Part shown: piece after piece, positions 52,958-62,588 of the stretch
Position numbering within the stretch: position 1 is the first letter of the stretch
Layout of the letters: each line of letters begins with the position of its first letter
Assembly: GCA_905182495.1 (NCBI GenBank)
Contig: CAJJBU010000018.1
Location: 1-64,000, forward strand
From: Flavobacteriales bacterium UBA952
GTDB taxonomy: Bacteria; Bacteroidota; Bacteroidia; Flavobacteriales_D; Crocinitomicaceae
Reading direction: 5' to 3'
DNA length: 64,000 bases
Notes under the pieces: model-generated
The model's input: only the letters and a program-made list of their open reading frames with translations
Database searches by the model: none
What the model was told of the DNA's origin: nothing
Translations under genes and position numbers: made by a program

Positions 52958-55900
52958 TCAGCCTTTTCCATTTTCTTTCTTTTTAGCAGGGGTTTTAGGC
53001 GTTAAACTTCCTTTTTTTTCAGGAGGTTCATTTGCTTTTAGTGTCGCGGCAGCCTTTGCTTTTGCACCGGCATCAGCTTTTGCTTTTAGTGTCGCGGCAG
53101 CCTTTGCTTTTGCAGCAGCATCAGCTTTTGCTTTAAGTGTCGCGGCAGCCTTTGCTTTTGCAGCAGCATCAGCCTTTGCAGCAGCATCAGCTTTTGCTTT
53201 TGCAGCGGCATCAGCTTTTGCTTTAAGTGTTGCGGCAGCCTTTGCTTTAAGTATTGCGGCAGCCTTTGCTTTTGCATCGGCATCAGCTTTTGCTTTAAGT
53301 GTCGCGGCAGCCTTTGCTTTAAGTGTCGCGGCAGCCTTTGCTTTTGCATCGGCATCAGCTTTTGCTTTAAGTGTTGCGGCAGCCTTTGCTTTTGCAGCGG
53401 CATCAGCTTTTGCTTTTAGTGTTGCGGCAGCCTTTGCTTTTGCATCGGCATCAGCTTTTGCTTTAAGTGTTGCGGCAGCCTTTGCTTTTGCATCGGCATC
53501 AGCTTTTGCTTTAAGTGTTGCGGCAGCCTTTGCTTTTGCAGCGGCATCTGCTTTTGTCCCATTTCCTTGCTCAGTATTTCCTCCCATATTTGTTCCTACA
53601 CCCTGGTTTTCATCATCTTCATCACCGCTTTCATCTTCCTGGCCATTTGGGCCACCGTTGCCTTGCCCAGGATTAGAAACATCTACTCCATCAGTGTTAT
53701 TGCCATGTCCATTATTGTTTCCAGGCCCACCTTCATTTCCGTTAGAGTTCCCTGATCCATTTTGACCATCTTCATCTGAATTGGTTCCAATATTTGTTCC
53801 GACACCCTGGTTTTCATCATCTTCATCACCGCTTTCATCTTCCTGGCCATTTGGGCCACCGTTGCCTTGCCCAGGATTAGAAACATCTACCCCATCAGTG
53901 TTATTGCCATGTCCATTATTGTTTCCAGGCCCACCTTCATTTCCATTAGAATTTCCCATTCCATTTCCGTTAGAGTTCCCTGATCCATTTTGACCATCTT
54001 CATCTGAATTGTTTCCAGTATTTGTTCCTACGCCCTGGTTTTCATCATCTTCATCACCGCTTTCATCTTCCTGGCCATTTGGGCCACCGTTGCCTTGCCC
54101 AGGATTAGAAACATCTACTCCATCAGTGTTATTGCCATGTCCATTATTGTTTCCAGGCCCACCTTCATTTCCATTAGAATTCCCCATTCCATTTCCGTTA
54201 TTCGAACCGTTACCATTTTGACCATTTAATGTGTCGTAAATAACTGTAATGCTAGAATTTGCAGCACCACAAGCGTTTTGAATCCTAATTGCAAAAACAT
54301 TATCCCCCGGCACTAAAATCACGGTTTTAGTTAGTTTTTCATTGCTAATATCGAAATCAAAGCCTTGAGGACTGCCATTAAAGGAAAATTGAATATTAGC
54401 GGCATCTAAAGCATTGTTAGCCATTGCTTCTAAATTGAAGGATTCATTTGTAACCACAGTATTTACCAGTGCAGGATTGATCCAGTTTACAGATGGGTTT
54501 TTACAACGCAATATTGAAAATGATTCCGAATCTGAACCACATGGGTTCACTGCATAAATAGAAATTGTGTTTTGTCCTAATATCAAAGGGATTGAGCCTG
54601 TTAAAGTCCCATTCATAATTTGATGATTAGAGGCTGGGAGCGTATTTCCATTTACGTTTATGGTGATGGTCGTGCTTGGCTGATCGTTAAAAATAGCAGC
54701 ATTTATGGAAACATTCGAAGACGTAATTACCGAAGGAATACTCGAGTTGTCTAAAACAATTTCCGGGATGTCACATGGCAGATATTCAATGATAATTAAC
54801 TCTGTGTCTTCTCCACAAGGGTTTTTGACATTCAATACAATTGAATTATTCCCATCAACTAAATTGATTTGTGATTTTAAAATTCCATTATTAAATGCAA
54901 ATGGTATTGAAATACCACCATTTTGCACAGTGATTTGGCTCGAAGTATTAATGTTCATCAGCTTAGCAATGAGTTGAATCTTTTGAGATGTGCTTAGAAC
55001 AGCATTACTCGTCGGTACTTTTAAGGAAATACTCGGTGGCTGGCAATCATCATAAACGATAGTCAATTCAACACTTGCATTCCCGCAAGGAGTAGTCACA
55101 ACGATTTTAAATGTATTTAAACCAGGACCAAGTACAACATTACTCATCAAAACACTATTAACAAATGAAAAGTTGATGTACTGTCCATTATGCTTGATCG
55201 AAATTTCGTTAGAGGTATTTACATTGCTCAAGTTTGCTGCAATTGTGTAAGATGAATTTGTGACCGTGGTGTTTGTCCCTCCATTAAGAGAACCTTGACT
55301 TGTAATGGCAATCATTGGATCTTTACAGTCATTGTAAATAACATGAAGCGTTTCTACATCATTACCACAATCATTTGAAGCACTTACTGTGAAGAAATTA
55401 TCTCCAGGGATAAGAACAATTTGTCCTGATAAGGTATTGCTTTGCGTATTATATTGAAGGCCTTGAATGGCTTGTCCATTTAAATTATAAGAGATGTTCT
55501 GAGCTCCAAATACTTCATTCACAGTAATATTCACGTTTAAGTTCGCTTGTAATGTGATTAAACCGGTTTGTGAGTTATTGAAGACAATTGAAGGAGCATC
55601 ACAATCTTCAAGATCAATCATAAAACTCTTGGTGTCTGAAGCGCATTCGTTTTGAACTACAACTGAAATGTTATTGATTCCTGGCACAAGTACAACAGCA
55701 AAATTCAGTTGATGATTTGCATAGGACGCGGATGCGATATTAATAAAAGCCCCATTTAGCTTTACAGCAATATTGTTTATTGTGATATCAGATCCTGTGA
55801 TTTGAATTTCAATATTCTGATTTTGATTATTCGTAGTCGCTCCTGAAGCAGAAGGGAGAATCATTTCAATATTAGGCGTCTCACATTCCTCAAATATGAT

Positions 55901-57616
55901 TGAGTTACTTATAGTTCCTGAGCCACATTCATTTTCAAAATCAATACGTATTGTATTTTGTCCTTGGTTGAGAGACAAGTTGCTGATTAAAAGTCCCGTA
56001 GATGGATTAAAGCTAAAACCAAAAACCTGGCTGTTATTTAGATATACTTCAAGCAAAGAGGCATCTGATATTTCTAAGACTCTTGCTTGAATCATTAAAT
56101 TCGGTGCATCAACTGTAATGTTTGATGTTGGGCTAATGAATGCCCCTGTTGGAATCGAGCAATTTGAATACTGAATATTTAAGCGATCCGTATCGCTGCC
56201 GCAATTGTTTGCTGCGGAGATGTAAAAAGTATTATTTCCTTCAACCAATGTTACTAAAGCAGTTAGTGTCTTTGTATTAGAATCAAAATTAAATGGCAGC
56301 TGAATTTGGTTTGCATTCGTGAATTTAATTTCAGAAACATCATTGACATTCTCTATTTGAGCGCTGAGTGAGATGGTTCCTTCGCTAACTGAAGTATTGT
56401 TTGCATTAAGAATATTCACTAAAGGTGATGGGCAGCTTGTAAACCCTGATGATGGGCTTGTTGTGTTTTGAAGATTTAGACGTGCCATATCACTGCCGCA
56501 ATTTGTTGTTGCTCTTAAGAAAAATGTATTGTTACCTGGGACTAAGCTAACAGTCGCCGTTACTTTATTGGAAAAAGAGTCATAATCAAATGGCAGTGGC
56601 ATTTGATTCATATCTGTAAGCTTGATCTGGCTTACGGCATTTACGTTTGTCAACTGCGCATTAATTGTTGTCGTACCTTCGTTTGAGGTACTATTATTTG
56701 TATTAAGAATACTCACTACAGGTGTCGGACAGCTTGTGAAACCGGAAGATGACGTAGGCGGTTTGGGGCTTGTCGGCCGCGATGAATTGTTAGATCCACC
56801 GAGTCTAAACTTAATGAAGGCTGAGGTGTAATGGTATAAATCATTCTCAAACCTTGGTATTTCAGAAATATACCCATCAAATTGATCACCACGCGTGAAA
56901 GTTGTTTTGTGCTCTAATCCAATAGAAGTTCTTCCAAAATCGTAAGCCAGTCCAAAGCCAAGGCTGGGCATGAAATACTTCTGCTTATTAATCAAGTCAG
57001 TTTCATAAATAAAGTCTAAGTCTTCATCAAGCATTTGTTGCTCAGAATAAATAGTACCCGTTTCCAAAGATGTTAAGTCGGCTTTGATGGTCTTCCATGA
57101 AATTCCAACACCTCCAAAAATATATGCATCTAAACCGGTCTTCTCTCGAAGTTTATTGAGGTGAATCACAAGTTCAAGGCTCAACCGACGCAAGTCCGTA
57201 TGATAGTTTGGGACAAATCCACCGTAGGCACTAGTGTATTGATCAAACAGCAGTTGGGCATCGTCATTAACTGATGTAATAGAAGTATCAATTGCTGTAT
57301 TTTGTCCATACCAGTGGCCGTGAAGGTAGCGTCCGCGAATATCAAAGCTTAAAAACTTACCATAATCATAATTGAATGATTTCCCTAAAACTATGCCCCA
57401 TCCTGAGGGACGTGTAAACCTAAAGTCATCGTCTTCCTGAGCAACATCTAGTGATGATGCTCTCCATTTCCATGAATTATCTATATCTGAACTACTCCAA
57501 GTAACTCCGGTATTAAATCCGATAAACCATTTAGAATCGTAATTGTTTCTGTCTTTCTGTCCTAAAAGACTTCCAAACACTATAAAAGTAAATGCGAGTA
57601 GGTATAAATTTTTCAT
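52958..57616 (-). CDS. 1552-residue surface protein: N-terminal barrel-like domain, nine Ig-like repeats, low-complexity tail
   Basis: After a signal peptide (MKNLYLLAFTFIVFGSLLGQ) residues ~25-275 look like an outer-membrane beta-barrel (WFIGFNTGVTWSSSDI, FDIRGRYLHGHWYG, FIFGGVGISWKT-like YIFGGVGISWKT, SIGLEHKTTFTRGDQFDG). Residues ~292-1130 are nine repeats of ~85-100 residues, each opening Cys-x-x-Pro (CPTPVVSIL, CPSPLVNIL, CSIPTGAFI, CETPNIEMI and so on) and containing PGxNxxxVxxxNxCG. Residues ~1133-1350 are three Asn/Gly/Asp-rich repeats, ~1350-1529 a Lys/Ala octad array, and the end is Pro/Lys-rich. There is no T9SS sorting domain. It is probably anchored in the outer membrane by its N-terminus and reaches outward or into the periplasm; I know no family for the whole. 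Confidence 0.8.
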   Translation of the reverse strand: MKNLYLLAFTFIVFGSLLGQKDRNNYDSKWFIGFNTGVTWSSSDIDNSWKWRASSLDVAQEDDDFRFTRPSGWGIVLGKSFNYDYGKFLSFDIRGRYLHGHWYGQNTAIDTSITSVNDDAQLLFDQYTSAYGGFVPNYHTDLRRLSLELVIHLNKLREKTGLDAYIFGGVGISWKTIKADLTSLETGTIYSEQQMLDEDLDFIYETDLINKQKYFMPSLGFGLAYDFGRTSIGLEHKTTFTRGDQFDGYISEIPRFENDLYHYTSAFIKFRLGGSNNSSRPTSPKPPTSSSGFTSCPTPVVSILNTNNSTSNEGTTTINAQLTNVNAVSQIKLTDMNQMPLPFDYDSFSNKVTATVSLVPGNNTFFLRATTNCGSDMARLNLQNTTSPSSGFTSCPSPLVNILNANNTSVSEGTISLSAQIENVNDVSEIKFTNANQIQLPFNFDSNTKTLTALVTLVEGNNTFYISAANNCGSDTDRLNIQYSNCSIPTGAFISPTSNITVDAPNLMIQARVLEISDASLLEVYLNNSQVFGFSFNPSTGLLISNLSLNQGQNTIRIDFENECGSGTISNSIIFEECETPNIEMILPSASGATTNNQNQNIEIQITGSDITINNIAVKLNGAFINIASASYANHQLNFAVVLVPGINNISVVVQNECASDTKSFMIDLEDCDAPSIVFNNSQTGLITLQANLNVNITVNEVFGAQNISYNLNGQAIQGLQYNTQSNTLSGQIVLIPGDNFFTVSASNDCGNDVETLHVIYNDCKDPMIAITSQGSLNGGTNTTVTNSSYTIAANLSNVNTSNEISIKHNGQYINFSFVNSVLMSNVVLGPGLNTFKIVVTTPCGNASVELTIVYDDCQPPSISLKVPTSNAVLSTSQKIQLIAKLMNINTSSQITVQNGGISIPFAFNNGILKSQINLVDGNNSIVLNVKNPCGEDTELIIIEYLPCDIPEIVLDNSSIPSVITSSNVSINAAIFNDQPSTTITINVNGNTLPASNHQIMNGTLTGSIPLILGQNTISIYAVNPCGSDSESFSILRCKNPSVNWINPALVNTVVTNESFNLEAMANNALDAANIQFSFNGSPQGFDFDISNEKLTKTVILVPGDNVFAIRIQNACGAANSSITVIYDTLNGQNGNGSNNGNGMGNSNGNEGGPGNNNGHGNNTDGVDVSNPGQGNGGPNGQEDESGDEDDENQGVGTNTGNNSDEDGQNGSGNSNGNGMGNSNGNEGGPGNNNGHGNNTDGVDVSNPGQGNGGPNGQEDESGDEDDENQGVGTNIGTNSDEDGQNGSGNSNGNEGGPGNNNGHGNNTDGVDVSNPGQGNGGPNGQEDESGDEDDENQGVGTNMGGNTEQGNGTKADAAAKAKAAATLKAKADADAKAKAAATLKAKADADAKAKAAATLKAKADAAAKAKAAATLKAKADADAKAKAAATLKAKAAATLKAKADADAKAKAAAILKAKAAATLKAKADAAAKAKADAAAKADAAAKAKAAATLKAKADAAAKAKAAATLKAKADAGAKAKAAATLKANEPPEKKGSLTPKTPAKKKENGKG
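53030..53558 (-). repeat. 24-bp/48-bp coding repeat: Lys/Ala octads
   Basis: Encodes alternating octads KAKAAATL and KAKADADA (or ADAA), about 22 in a row, likely a long helix of high positive charge. The spacing of 8 residues is irregular in a few places where one octad type is repeated. The bias also opens a long false frame on the plus strand. Confidence 0.85.
53565..54217 (-). repeat. Three Asn/Gly/Asp-rich coding repeats (204 and 228 bp spacing)
   Basis: Each copy has a Gly/Asn part (GNEGGPGNNNGHGNNTDGVD), then SNPGQGNGGPNGQ, then an acidic run (EDESGDEDDENQ). The marker TTTTCATCATCTTC recurs on the plus strand at 53607, 53811 and 54039. The longer spacing comes from an extra NGNGMGNS octapeptide. 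The acidic blocks could bind calcium. Confidence 0.85.
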
Positions 57617-61022: not shown

Positions 61023-61038
61023 AATGGTGAGACCAAGG

Positions 61039-61176
61039 TAAGGACAGGACTTCTCACACAATTGGTCCAAGGTGGACCATGCTAAAACTATTAAACTCTT
61101 ATCATTAGATGATACAAATCCAGCTTCTCCAAGCAAGATTTTAAGTGTTGCGTGAGAAGAGGCCTGTTTATCCTTA
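61039..61176 (-). ncRNA. Structured RNA, diverged copy A
   Basis: Seventeen bases after the cyclase gene. Plus-strand pairing: TAAGG (61039) with CCTTA (61172), ACAGG with CCTGT, and CTTCTCAC with GTGAGAAG. Inside are hairpin 1 (TGGTCCA-AGG-TGGACCA, 61063-61079) and hairpin 2 (GCTT-CTCC-AAGC). The core at 61082-61104 is identical over 23 bases to copy B. A minus-strand TACCTTTG (61188-61181) lies just upstream of the 5' end. I see no terminator after it, so this copy may be less independent or inactive. Confidence 0.62.
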
Positions 61177-61246
61177 AGTACAAAGGTATGAAAATTTTAT
61201 AAGTTTTGGAATTTTAGATACAGATATTCAATTAATTTAAATAACT

Positions 61247-61269
61247 AAAAAAGGCCCCGAAAGGCCTTT
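61247..61269 (-). terminator. Terminator of RNA copy B
   Basis: A 7-bp stem (AAAGGCC 61250-61256 with GGCCTTT 61263-61269, 6-base loop). The T run lies on the minus strand (A run at 61247-61252 on the plus strand), while the plus-strand side continues GTATTG, so it favours minus-strand transcripts. The same element recurs at 61546-61568 and 61846-61868. Confidence 0.72.
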
Positions 61270-61437
61270 GTATTGATTGTTTGTGTTACTGCAAGTTATA
61301 AATAAGGTACAGGAACTTCTTATGCAAATGACCCAAGATGGGTCTACTAAAACTATTAAACTCTTATCAAACTAGAAAACTGCTTCTCCAAGCAGCTAAA
61401 ATTTCGCATAAGAAGTAGCCTGTGTCTCTCCTTATTT
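61247..61437 (-). ncRNA. Structured RNA, copy B, with terminator
   Basis: The core is 61300-61437: AAATAAGG/CCTTATTT, ACAGG/CCTGT and an 11-bp stem ACTTCTTATGC (61315) with GCATAAGAAGT (61406). Enclosed are hairpin GACCCA-AGA-TGGGTC (61330-61344), a long unpaired A/T-rich core (61345-61379) and hairpin CTGCTT-CTCC-AAGCAG (61380-61395). On the minus strand the 3' end is followed by AAAGGCC-loop-GGCCTTTTTT, a good intrinsic terminator. The orientation is inferred from that and from copy D's promoter. Its own -7 box is TAGTTATG, one base off consensus. Confidence 0.68.
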
Positions 61438-61545
61438 CATAACTAAGGTAGGTTACTTGTTTGGGTCTATTGAGCCAGAATGAATATTCCATTGAAGTTC
61501 TCGAAAGTAAATGGGCAATGGTTTATTATTTGAGTTTTGGGCATA

Positions 61546-61737
61546 AAAAAAGGCCCCGAAAGGCCTTTGTATTGATTGTTTGTGTTACTGCAAGTTATAA
61601 ATAAGGTACAGGAACTTCTTATGCAAATGACCCAAGGTGGGTCTACTAAAACTATTAAACTCTTATCAAACTAGAAAACTGCTTCTCCAAGCAGCTAAAA
61701 TTTCGCATAAGAAGTAAGCCTGTGTCTCTCCTTATTT
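61546..61737 (-). ncRNA. Structured RNA, copy C, with terminator
   Basis: Near-identical to copy B at a spacing of 299 bases (core 61599-61737, terminator 61546-61568). It differs by single bases, such as the hairpin-1 loop AGG for AGA and an extra A after the right arm of the main stem (AAGAAGTAAGCC). Stems are unchanged. The flanking ~100-base spacer is also duplicated, so the entire cassette was copied recently. Confidence 0.68.
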
Positions 61738-61845
61738 CATAACTAAGGTAGGTTACTTGTTTGGGTCTATTGAGCCAGAATGAATATTCCATTGAAGTTC
61801 TCGAAAGTAAAGGGGCAATGGTTTATTATTTGAGTTTTGGGCATA

Positions 61846-62031
61846 AAAAAAGGCCCTGAAAGGCCTTTGTATTGATTGTTTGTGTTACTGCAAGTTATAA
61901 ATAAGGTACAGGAACTTCTTATGCAAGTGACTCAAAAAGGGCCGATTAATAATAACTCTTACGAATTATAAAACTACTTCTCCAAGCAGCTAACATTTTG
62001 CATAAGAAGCAACCTGAGTCTCTCCTTATTT
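61846..62031 (-). ncRNA. Structured RNA, copy D, with terminator and best promoter
   Basis: Core 61899-62031, terminator 61846-61868 (loop CTGAAA). The outer and main stems are kept (AAATAAGG/CCTTATTT, CTTCTTATGCAA/TTGCATAAGAAG). Hairpin 1 is weakened (GACTC-AAAAA-GGGCC), hairpin 2 has one mismatch (CTACTT/AAGCAG), and the central core is changed to a different A/T-rich sequence keeping only a TAAGAGTT element on the minus strand. It stands behind an exact consensus promoter. Confidence 0.68.
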
Positions 62032-62062
62032 CAAACCTAAAATAGGTACTTACATGGATCAA
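62032..62062 (-). promoter_or_regulatory. Promoter of RNA copy D
   Basis: On the minus strand TTG (62062-62060), a 20-base spacer and TAGGTTTG (62039-62032) match the Bacteroidota consensus exactly. The RNA's outer stem begins directly after it at 62031, a few bases before the expected start point. Confidence 0.7.
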
Positions 62063-62138
62063 GATGATCGGAATGAATATATAGTCACTCTGAATGAGTA
62101 TTAGTGCCTTTTGAATTATTATTGAGTGTTATTTGAGA

Positions 62139-62588
62139 TCAGTATTTGAAATTGAGACGGCCATTTATCCATTGCCCATCTAGTTCAGCACTGTGTTTTA
62201 CGTAAAAGTCAATAGCAGGTTTATTCCAGTCTAATACTTGCCAATCCATACGTCTTACTTTTTTTAATTTTGCAATGTCGATTACGGCATTGTAGAGTTT
62301 AGATCCAACACCTTGTTGACGCGCATTTTCTTTTACATAAAAGTCTTCCAAGTAAAGGCAATGACCTTTCCAGGTAGAATAAGACATGTAATACAGTGCA
62401 AAACCAATAATTTCATTTTTTTTTTCAGCAACTATAGCATGACATATTTTTTCATGAAAAAGATGATTGCAAAGTTCTTGTTCGTTGTTAACAACCTCAT
62501 CGGGTTCTTTTTCATAAAGTGCTAACTCCTTTATCATAGAAAAGATGTCCTTTTCATCTCCAGGTTTAGCTTCTCGTATTAGAATCAT
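62139..62588 (-). CDS. GNAT-family N-acetyltransferase (diamine acetyltransferase-like)
   Basis: A 149-residue cytoplasmic enzyme that moves acetyl from acetyl-CoA to an amine. The acetyl-CoA loop is VKENARQQGVGSKLYNAVID (~86-105, matching Q/RxxGxG/A), preceded by LYLEDFYV, and the last strand is MDWQVLDWNKPAIDFYVKHS. The opening IREAKPGDEKDIFSMIKELA and overall layout resemble spermidine/spermine-type acetyltransferases. Its ATG overlaps the natural sprA stop (ATGA), so the two should be translationally coupled. Confidence 0.9.
   Translation of the reverse strand: MILIREAKPGDEKDIFSMIKELALYEKEPDEVVNNEQELCNHLFHEKICHAIVAEKKNEIIGFALYYMSYSTWKGHCLYLEDFYVKENARQQGVGSKLYNAVIDIAKLKKVRRMDWQVLDWNKPAIDFYVKHSAELDGQWINGRLNFKY

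What the first reader, a model, noticed from the sequence alone, without database searches (positions are those of the whole stretch)
61039..62031. Four tandem copies of an unrecognised structured RNA
The only gene-free region holds four copies of a ~138-base element. Each folds into the same plan: a three-part closing stem with a bulge on one side, two inner hairpins (the second with a CTCC/GGAG loop) and a long unpaired A/T-rich core. No protein frame is kept across copies. Tandem small RNAs of this kind usually act as redundant or additive regulators, or carry different target-pairing cores. I cannot match it to a known family; 6S RNA is one alternative, but two hairpins inside one large junction do not fit it well.
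Basis: partly seen in the sequence, partly recalled or inferred. Interest (0 to 1): 0.88.

Follow-up and report, generated by a model that had tools for sequence, protein, structure and literature searches.

The report
Tandem small RNAs under two-component control
Four side-by-side copies of an uncatalogued small regulatory RNA were found in an uncultured aquatic bacterium; in related genera the RNA gene usually sits right behind a signal-sensing kinase and its DNA-binding partner, which probably switch it on.

Summary
In detail: window 61037-62032 holds four copies of a structured element. No Rfam family matches it. A covariance model finds it in 80 of 86 genomes of the genus and, in a 299-genome sample of the order, in 38 genomes of other genera, all of the same family. 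The family is Crocinitomicaceae; it includes cultured Fluviicola taffensis. Two TATTCATT-like direct repeats 21 bp apart precede the gene (>=12/14 in 84 of 88; reversed control 0 of 88). In 30 of 36 fetched loci of other genera a LytTR response regulator gene lies directly upstream, after a histidine kinase gene. LytTR proteins bind such repeats. The same repeats precede a second RpoD-type sigma gene in several lineages. Best reading: a two-component system drives a trans-acting small RNA, as AgrA drives RNAIII, with tandem copies for dosage. Targets are unknown; no long antisense partner was found. 6S RNA is unlikely.

The parts
61842..62032 (-). sRNA copy 4 (first transcribed): 5' GAAATAAGG at 62032, terminator stem 61868-61849; core damaged (CGTAAGAGT----TATTATTAATC)
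61542..61738 (-). sRNA copy 3: body 61738-61600, terminator stem 61568-61549; intact core
61243..61438 (-). sRNA copy 2: body 61438-61301, terminator stem 61269-61250; intact core
61023..61175 (-). sRNA copy 1 (type B, last of the array): no GAAATAAGG 5' end, no box pair (best 9/14, control level), no terminator listed; keeps closing stem and GATAAGAGTTTAATAGTTTTAGC; ends approximate
   Evidence: similar last copy in the 10 arrays compared
62072..62100 (-). direct-repeat box pair of copy 4: TACTCATT and TATTCATT, 21 bp apart, 13/14
61779..61807 (-). box pair of copy 3, 11/14: second box TATTCATT (61786-61779) intact, first degenerate
61479..61507 (-). box pair of copy 2, 11/14: second box TATTCATT (61486-61479) intact, first degenerate
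62037..62044 (-). -7 promoter box of copy 4 (TATTTTAG)
   Evidence: statistics
61743..61750 (-). -7 promoter box of copy 3 (TACCTTAG)
   Evidence: statistics
61443..61450 (-). -7 promoter box of copy 2 (TACCTTAG)
   Evidence: statistics
61181..61188 (-). -7 promoter box of copy 1 (TACCTTTG, fits the published consensus TAnnTTTG fully)
   Evidence: consensus from PMC7366714 and PMC9723704
60225..61022 (+). convergent neighbour, putative cyclase (PF04199); conserved neighbour in the genus, not taken as part of the system
62139..62588 (-). upstream neighbour, GNAT acetyltransferase; in most fetched loci of other genera this place is held by the histidine kinase-LytTR pair

Best explanation
The element is a family of ~190-200 nt trans-acting regulatory RNAs, so far seen only in Crocinitomicaceae. 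A sensor histidine kinase phosphorylates a LytTR response regulator, which binds two direct repeats 21 bp apart centred about 55 bp before the RNA and activates its sigma-A type promoter. The 5' and 3' ends form a long closing stem; inner stem P2 holds out an almost invariant apical domain (hairpin with a GGAGA loop plus a U-rich single-stranded core, CAUUUUCUAGUUUGAU..AAGAGUWUAAYAGUU). This domain acts in trans on mRNAs, most likely by short base pairing, perhaps with a helper protein. Tandem copies in one clade raise dosage; the last (type B) copy has a promoter without the repeats. Shown by sequence comparison: RNA gene, strand, structure, promoter repeats, neighbouring two-component genes in other genera. 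Inferred: binding of this LytTR protein, activation, action in trans, base pairing, dosage.
For: Structure conserved with compensatory changes; P2 with the adjoining part of P1 pairs far better with its own partner than with swapped ones (-19.0 vs -9.5 kcal/mol, 43 own and 344 swapped pairs). Own terminator in 82 of 88 genes; in equal windows 79 of 85 against 3 of 85 on the other strand; -7 box >=5/6 in 84 of 88 against 25 of 88 reversed and 10 of 88 in a window further upstream. Box pair >=12/14 in 84 of 88 against 0 of 88 reversed. Adjacent Response_reg+LytTR gene and kinase gene in 30 of 36 loci outside the genus (one protein of each type checked with Pfam). The LytTR-like spacing stood in my notes before the neighbour was seen. 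In those 36 loci 31 have a pair of >=13/14, 33 pairs in all, each before the RNA (32 counted so, the 33rd before the weak RNA of L166); reversed control 0. LytTR sites are paired 9-bp direct repeats 10-13 bp apart (PMC11347149, passages). Box pairs also precede a second RpoD-type gene.
Against: In the window's own genus the kinase-LytTR pair is not next to the RNA in the loci held, and I could not search for it elsewhere. Copies 2 and 3 of the window have a degenerate first box (11/14, the level of the best reversed control). 6 of 36 outside loci lack the pair of genes. Synteny alone can be inherited without function. No transcript data. No target: with 3 mismatches allowed, one place besides the RNA genes in 41 genomes, fewer than the 8 matches of the reversed control, and no consistent pairing with the sigma gene leader. 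Near-invariance of ~50 nt is more than a short seed needs and could mean protein binding.
Confidence: 0.7

Rival explanations
1. Protein-titrating RNA: the conserved apical domain (GGAGA in a loop and again at the 5' end, U-rich strand) binds and sequesters an RNA-binding protein, as RsmY/Z/CsrB do for CsrA; pairing with mRNA plays no part.
For: About 50 nt almost invariant across the family, including unpaired positions; two GGAGA motifs; no antisense partner; extra copies fit titration.
Against: No CsrA in the own genome (one genome, 85% complete). Only two motifs per RNA. L034/L035 lost the GGAG loop but keep the core. RRM, Hfq and other RNA-binding proteins were not searched.
Confidence: 0.25
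2. A divergent 6S RNA that binds RNA polymerase.
For: Nearly ubiquitous in the genus, long closing stem; no known 6S family found in the genomes tested; shared promoter boxes with an RpoD-type gene in several lineages.
Against: No Rfam 6S similarity. The predicted open region is one-sided (a few nt against ~36 nt) with a small hairpin, not a roughly symmetrical bubble with a long terminal stem (6S architecture recalled). Two-component neighbour. Failure to find 6S may be a limit of the models: the RF01685 control genomes gave no true positive.
Confidence: 0.06
3. Cis element: 3' element of the convergent cyclase gene or leader of a downstream gene.
For: The cyclase gene is next to it in 45 of 53 genus loci; 6 of the other 8 are cut within 250 bases.
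Against: Own promoter and terminator; upstream neighbours differ in other genera.
Confidence: 0.02
4. Repeat or mobile element without function.
For: Tandem copies, two of them 95% alike over 238 nt.
Against: One syntenic copy in most genus genomes, compensatory changes, conserved promoter sites.
Confidence: 0.01

Closest known systems
AgrCA-RNAIII of staphylococci
   Same: LytTR response regulator, encoded beside the RNA gene, binds two direct repeats upstream of the promoter of a regulatory RNA (PMC4227749, passages)
   Different: Different phylum; no peptide-signal genes looked for; RNA not similar as far as Rfam shows; RNAIII ~514 nt and encodes delta-hemolysin (length recalled)
FopS/GibS paralogous sRNAs of Bacteroides thetaiotaomicron
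   Same: Multicopy sRNAs in Bacteroidota, dosage idea, sigma-ABfr promoters (PMC11697453, passages)
   Different: FopS: single-stranded 5' stretch plus terminator hairpin, many loci, Bacteroidaceae; no closing stem and no LytTR locus in the passages read
Qrr sRNAs of Vibrio (recalled; named in PMC11697453)
   Same: Two-component controlled, several redundant copies
   Different: Hfq and sigma-54 dependent, dispersed genes, other fold (recalled)
6S-Flavo (RF01685) and 6S (RF00013)
   Same: Long closing stem, housekeeping-like distribution
   Different: No match over cut-off; different open region
Rfp18 of Flavobacterium psychrophilum
   Same: Flavobacterial sRNA conserved in its genus (PMC9723704, passages)
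   Different: No convincing homologue of the present RNA seen outside Crocinitomicaceae in the samples searched; Rfp18's sequence was not compared directly

Membership tests
Independent trans-acting sRNA gene | Own promoter and own terminator, no ORF | tested here: met
   -7 box in 84 of 88, terminator in 82 of 88 (controls); no ORF of 60 aa
Independent trans-acting sRNA gene | Transcript observed | not testable with these tools
   no expression data
Independent trans-acting sRNA gene | Target mRNAs by base pairing | tested here: inconclusive
   only one suggestive site in one genome
LytTR-controlled promoter | Paired ~9-bp direct repeats, 10-13 bp between, upstream of the promoter | tested here: met
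   21-bp period, 84 of 88 genes at >=12/14, control 0 of 88; copies 2 and 3 of the window only 11/14
LytTR-controlled promoter | LytTR gene in the locus | tested here: met
   30 of 36 loci in other genera; not adjacent in the window's genus
LytTR-controlled promoter | Protein binds the repeats | not testable with these tools
   needs EMSA or footprint
6S RNA | Match to RF00013 or RF01685 | tested here: not met
   RF00013: 0 of 15 at E<=1, six control genomes ring. RF01685: 0 of 40 over cut-off, two weak matches (one in genus genome G017, not at the RNA); no true positive among its controls
6S RNA | Roughly symmetrical central bubble mimicking an open promoter (recalled) | tested here: not met
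   one-sided open strand in the predicted structures
CsrB/RsmY-type sponge | CsrA protein in the genome | tested here: not met
   PF02599 absent in own genome, 85% complete; one genome tested
Any Rfam 15 family | Gathering score reached | tested here: not met
   window and 15 homologous loci: only an unrelated tRNA in L027
AgrA-RNAIII system | agrBD peptide-signal genes and RNAIII homology | not tested
   flanks were searched for kinase and regulator only

The most novel reading that the evidence does not exclude
A family-wide histidine kinase-LytTR-sRNA module that runs in parallel with a duplicated primary-type sigma factor: the same phospho-relay raises the sRNA and a second RpoD, and the sRNA (by binding polymerase, a sigma factor or sigma mRNAs) sets which sigma programme wins. 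It would be an RNAIII-like global effector in Bacteroidota, possibly taking the place of 6S RNA.
Probability: 0.1. Interest if true: 0.85.

Novelty: new variant of a known kind. Interest (0 to 1): 0.62.

Why it matters
Regulatory RNAs of Bacteroidota outside Bacteroides are little studied (my recollection). This one is found throughout a family of aquatic bacteria (by record titles, lakes and sea), has a probable dedicated signal system, shares promoter sites with a second primary-type sigma factor, and occurs in a cultured type strain, so it can be tested directly.

Tried and rejected
Plus-strand RNA: rejected on terminators, G-U against A-C counts (67 to 11 in the 34 rows of A2) and promoter; the terminator scan lists the same hairpins for the plus strand with poorer T-tails. 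Known Rfam families: none. 6S and CsrA sponge: see rivals. Long antisense partner of the core: 36 of 37 listed matches are the RNA gene itself, the other is one place in G031 with 3 mismatches, and the reversed control gives 8; only the first 22 nt of the core were tested this way, the rest by blastn. Pairing with the sigma paralogue leader: 7 of 30 leaders at p<=0.05, at differing positions, not accepted. Weak blastn sites (13 fetched): 12 lie inside an ORF on one strand or the other. The 13th, in the window's own genome, puts a 14-bp perfect complement of UUUUCUAGUUUGAU 11-24 nt before the first ATG of an ECF-like sigma gene (named by eye). By a rough estimate of my own, not computed in a call, chance gives about 0.06 such core matches in start regions; it was noticed after the fact and not tested in relatives, so it is only a lead. 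P5 hairpin in the core: no covariation support. Class-wide search: three matches at E 0.05-0.07 outside the family, treated as chance.

Limits: the order search scored 10 candidates per genome with strict filters, so absence outside the family is not absolute; 8 of its 38 family matches have E above 0.01. The 36 outside loci are those fetched of the 38. The 20 box-pair places fetched were chosen by eye, so their lying outside ORFs of 80 aa (20 of 20) is biased. The 30 sigma loci are the best-scoring ones, not a random sample. Of 86 genus genomes 6 had no match, two of them 98-99% complete (G072, G007).

Full report
1. Observation. The stretch 61023-62138 between a putative cyclase gene and a GNAT gene (Pfam) has no ORF of 60 aa or more and holds a repeated element. 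Copies are 295-300 bp apart, about 265 bp to the diverged one; a 238-nt unit and its repeat are 95% identical. Each copy folds below all 200 dinucleotide shuffles, z -4.7 to -5.9; the plus strand of copy 2 does so too, z -6.8. Rfam: no match in the whole window at gathering scores; 15 weak matches at E up to 10, all far below their gathering scores.

2. Homologues. Blastn with copy 2 gave matches in 38 of 60 genomes, four of them weak ones outside the genus. Aligned in RNA orientation, 34 distinct bodies, the four copies included, gave a structure with compensatory changes: 88.2% of cells paired, 14 of 37 pairs with a change on both sides, 57 doubly changed cells against 17.7 in shuffles, slid controls 41-51% paired; the outermost helix reaches only 68.9%. 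A covariance model (R1) finds it in 80 of 86 genomes of the genus, 48 of 50 of the good ones; 12 of the 86 have two or more copies. In a sample of 299 genomes of the order 81 match: 43 of the genus and 38 others, all of the same family, 8 of these 38 with E above 0.01. A second model, on the apical domain, run on 198 genomes of the class, gives strong matches in three genomes of that family, none in two others of it, and three marginal ones, E 0.05-0.07, elsewhere. An exact core pattern in the collection of 84,980 species genomes gives 52 stretches, 40 of them titled Crocinitomicaceae or Flavobacteriales; the other 12 bear names such as Cryomorphaceae, Chitinophaga, Chryseobacterium, Sphingomonadales or Polynucleobacter. 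Crocinitomicaceae includes Fluviicola; handle G180 has one contig of 4,633,577 bases, the length of the F. taffensis RW262 genome (PMC3236050, passages).

3. Strand and gene anatomy. Of 88 distinct complete genes (60 from loci of the genus, 28 from L133-L172) an intrinsic terminator follows on the RNA strand in 82, and none was found on the opposite strand in the 120 nt before the 5' end; with equal 200-nt windows the figures are 79 and 3 of 85. Paired cells of the 34-row alignment show 67 G-U against 11 A-C (which would be G-U on the other strand). A -7 box like the Bacteroidota consensus TAnnTTTG (PMC7366714; PMC9723704; passages) scores 5-6 of 6 in 84 of 88, against 25 reversed and 10 in a window further upstream, and lies 4-6 nt before GAAATAAGGAG in 77 of 88. 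So the RNA reads on the minus strand of the window and should be about 190-200 nt long (median 205 to the end of the terminator stem over the 82 genes). Parts: closing stem P1 in segments with an AGAGA bulge; P2, which changes wholly in sequence between genera but keeps pairing (mean duplex, with part of P1, -19.0 against -9.5 kcal/mol for swapped flanks); hairpin P3 (CTGC..GCAG, loop with GGAGA); and a U-rich core nearly invariant in the 43 sequences aligned. P3 does not vary there and a possible P5 hardly does, so neither has covariation support in that alignment.

4. Array. In the genus the cyclase gene, convergent, is next to the RNA in 45 of 53 loci; 6 of the other 8 are cut within 250 bases. 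In the cyclase tree 9 array-bearing rows and one single-copy row form a fully supported set of 10; the label needs two changes, and the program warns of long branches (the tenth array, L083, dropped out because its cyclase match is short). The last copy of each of the 10 arrays compared is of one type (B): TAnnTTTG in 9 of 10, box-pair score 8-10 of 14 (control level), no GAAATAAGG, but an invariant GATAAGAGTTTAATAGTTTTAGC. In the window copy 4 has lost part of the core; its box pair scores 13 of 14, those of copies 2 and 3 only 11.

5. Regulation. Upstream of the -7 box stand two TATTCATT-like direct repeats 21 bp apart: 12 or more of 14 positions in 84 of 88 genes, against none of 88 when read backwards. 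In 61 genus genomes the strict pair occurs 114 times against 19 for the reversed pattern (sums). The spacing suggested a LytTR protein (notes). Reading the other genera then showed that the gene directly before the RNA, on the same strand, is related to a Response_reg-LytTR protein (PF00072, PF04397) and is preceded by a TPR histidine kinase (PF06580): 30 of 36 loci, that is all that I fetched of the 38 family matches (Pfam was run on one protein of each type, the rest by tblastn). L133, L144, L156, L157, L160 and L165 lack the pair. Three weak model hits (L164, L166, L167) share the neighbourhood, which supports them as homologues. In these 36 loci 31 have a box pair of 13 or more; all 33 such pairs lie before the RNA (32 counted so, the 33rd before the weak RNA of L166), and the reversed control has none. 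LytTR sites are paired 9-bp direct repeats 10-13 bp apart, mostly upstream of the promoter (PMC11347149, passages); AgrA binds such repeats before RNAIII (PMC4227749, passages).

6. Other genes with the boxes. The pair also precedes a gene for an RpoD-type sigma factor: in four genus genomes found by pattern (L173, L215, L216, L223), and with 13-14 of 14 in 10 of 30 loci examined across the family (L226 is the same gene as L215); four more of one genus reach 12 of 14. The other 16, including the window's own genome (10 of 14), score 9-11. The family usually has two such sigma genes (102 of 110 genomes with two matches, my count of its table).

7. Function. A small RNA acting in trans under a two-component system is the best reading. 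How it acts is open. The complement of the first 22 nt of the core does not recur outside the RNA genes in 41 genomes beyond the control level. Pairing with the sigma leader is not consistent. One start-region site before an ECF-like sigma gene in the own genome is a lead only. The invariance of the apical domain would also suit protein binding. 6S RNA is not supported (and the one-sided open strand).

8. Literature. No paper in the held library has both Crocinitomicaceae and 'small RNA' or 'sRNA', or Fluviicola and 'noncoding RNA'. A search for three of LytTR, direct repeats, 21 bp and sRNA gave six papers, none on such a system by title and start of abstract. The nearest Bacteroidota case seen is FopS (PMC11697453, passages). 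The library is incomplete, so this is no proof of novelty.

Noticed in passing
family genomes, e.g. L226-L255, L173, L215, L216, L223: Most genomes of the family hold two RpoD-type sigma genes (102 of 110); one of the two carries the LytTR-like box pair in several lineages.
   Followed up: partly
L306 (G000:C9:32681-32698): 14-bp perfect complement of the RNA core 11-24 nt before the first ATG of an ECF-like sigma gene in the window's genome.
   Followed up: partly
L207, L209: Box pair before a gene that looks by eye like a winged-helix regulator, with an APS-kinase-like gene further on, in two genomes.
   Followed up: no
L034, L035; L032, L033: L034 and L035 have other stems and no GGAG loop but keep the core; L032 and L033 show the opposite, with the core changed and the GGAG hairpin kept.
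   Followed up: partly
RNA 5' end, e.g. window 62032-62022 (-): The conserved GAAAUAAGGAG at the 5' end looks like a Shine-Dalgarno sequence, which most Flavobacteriales mRNAs lack (PMC9976891, passages); the 16S tail of this family was not checked.
   Followed up: no
window 52958-57616 (-): 1552-aa ORF with one Ig-like Pfam match, long Gly/Asn-rich repeats and an Ala-Lys-rich tail.
   Followed up: no
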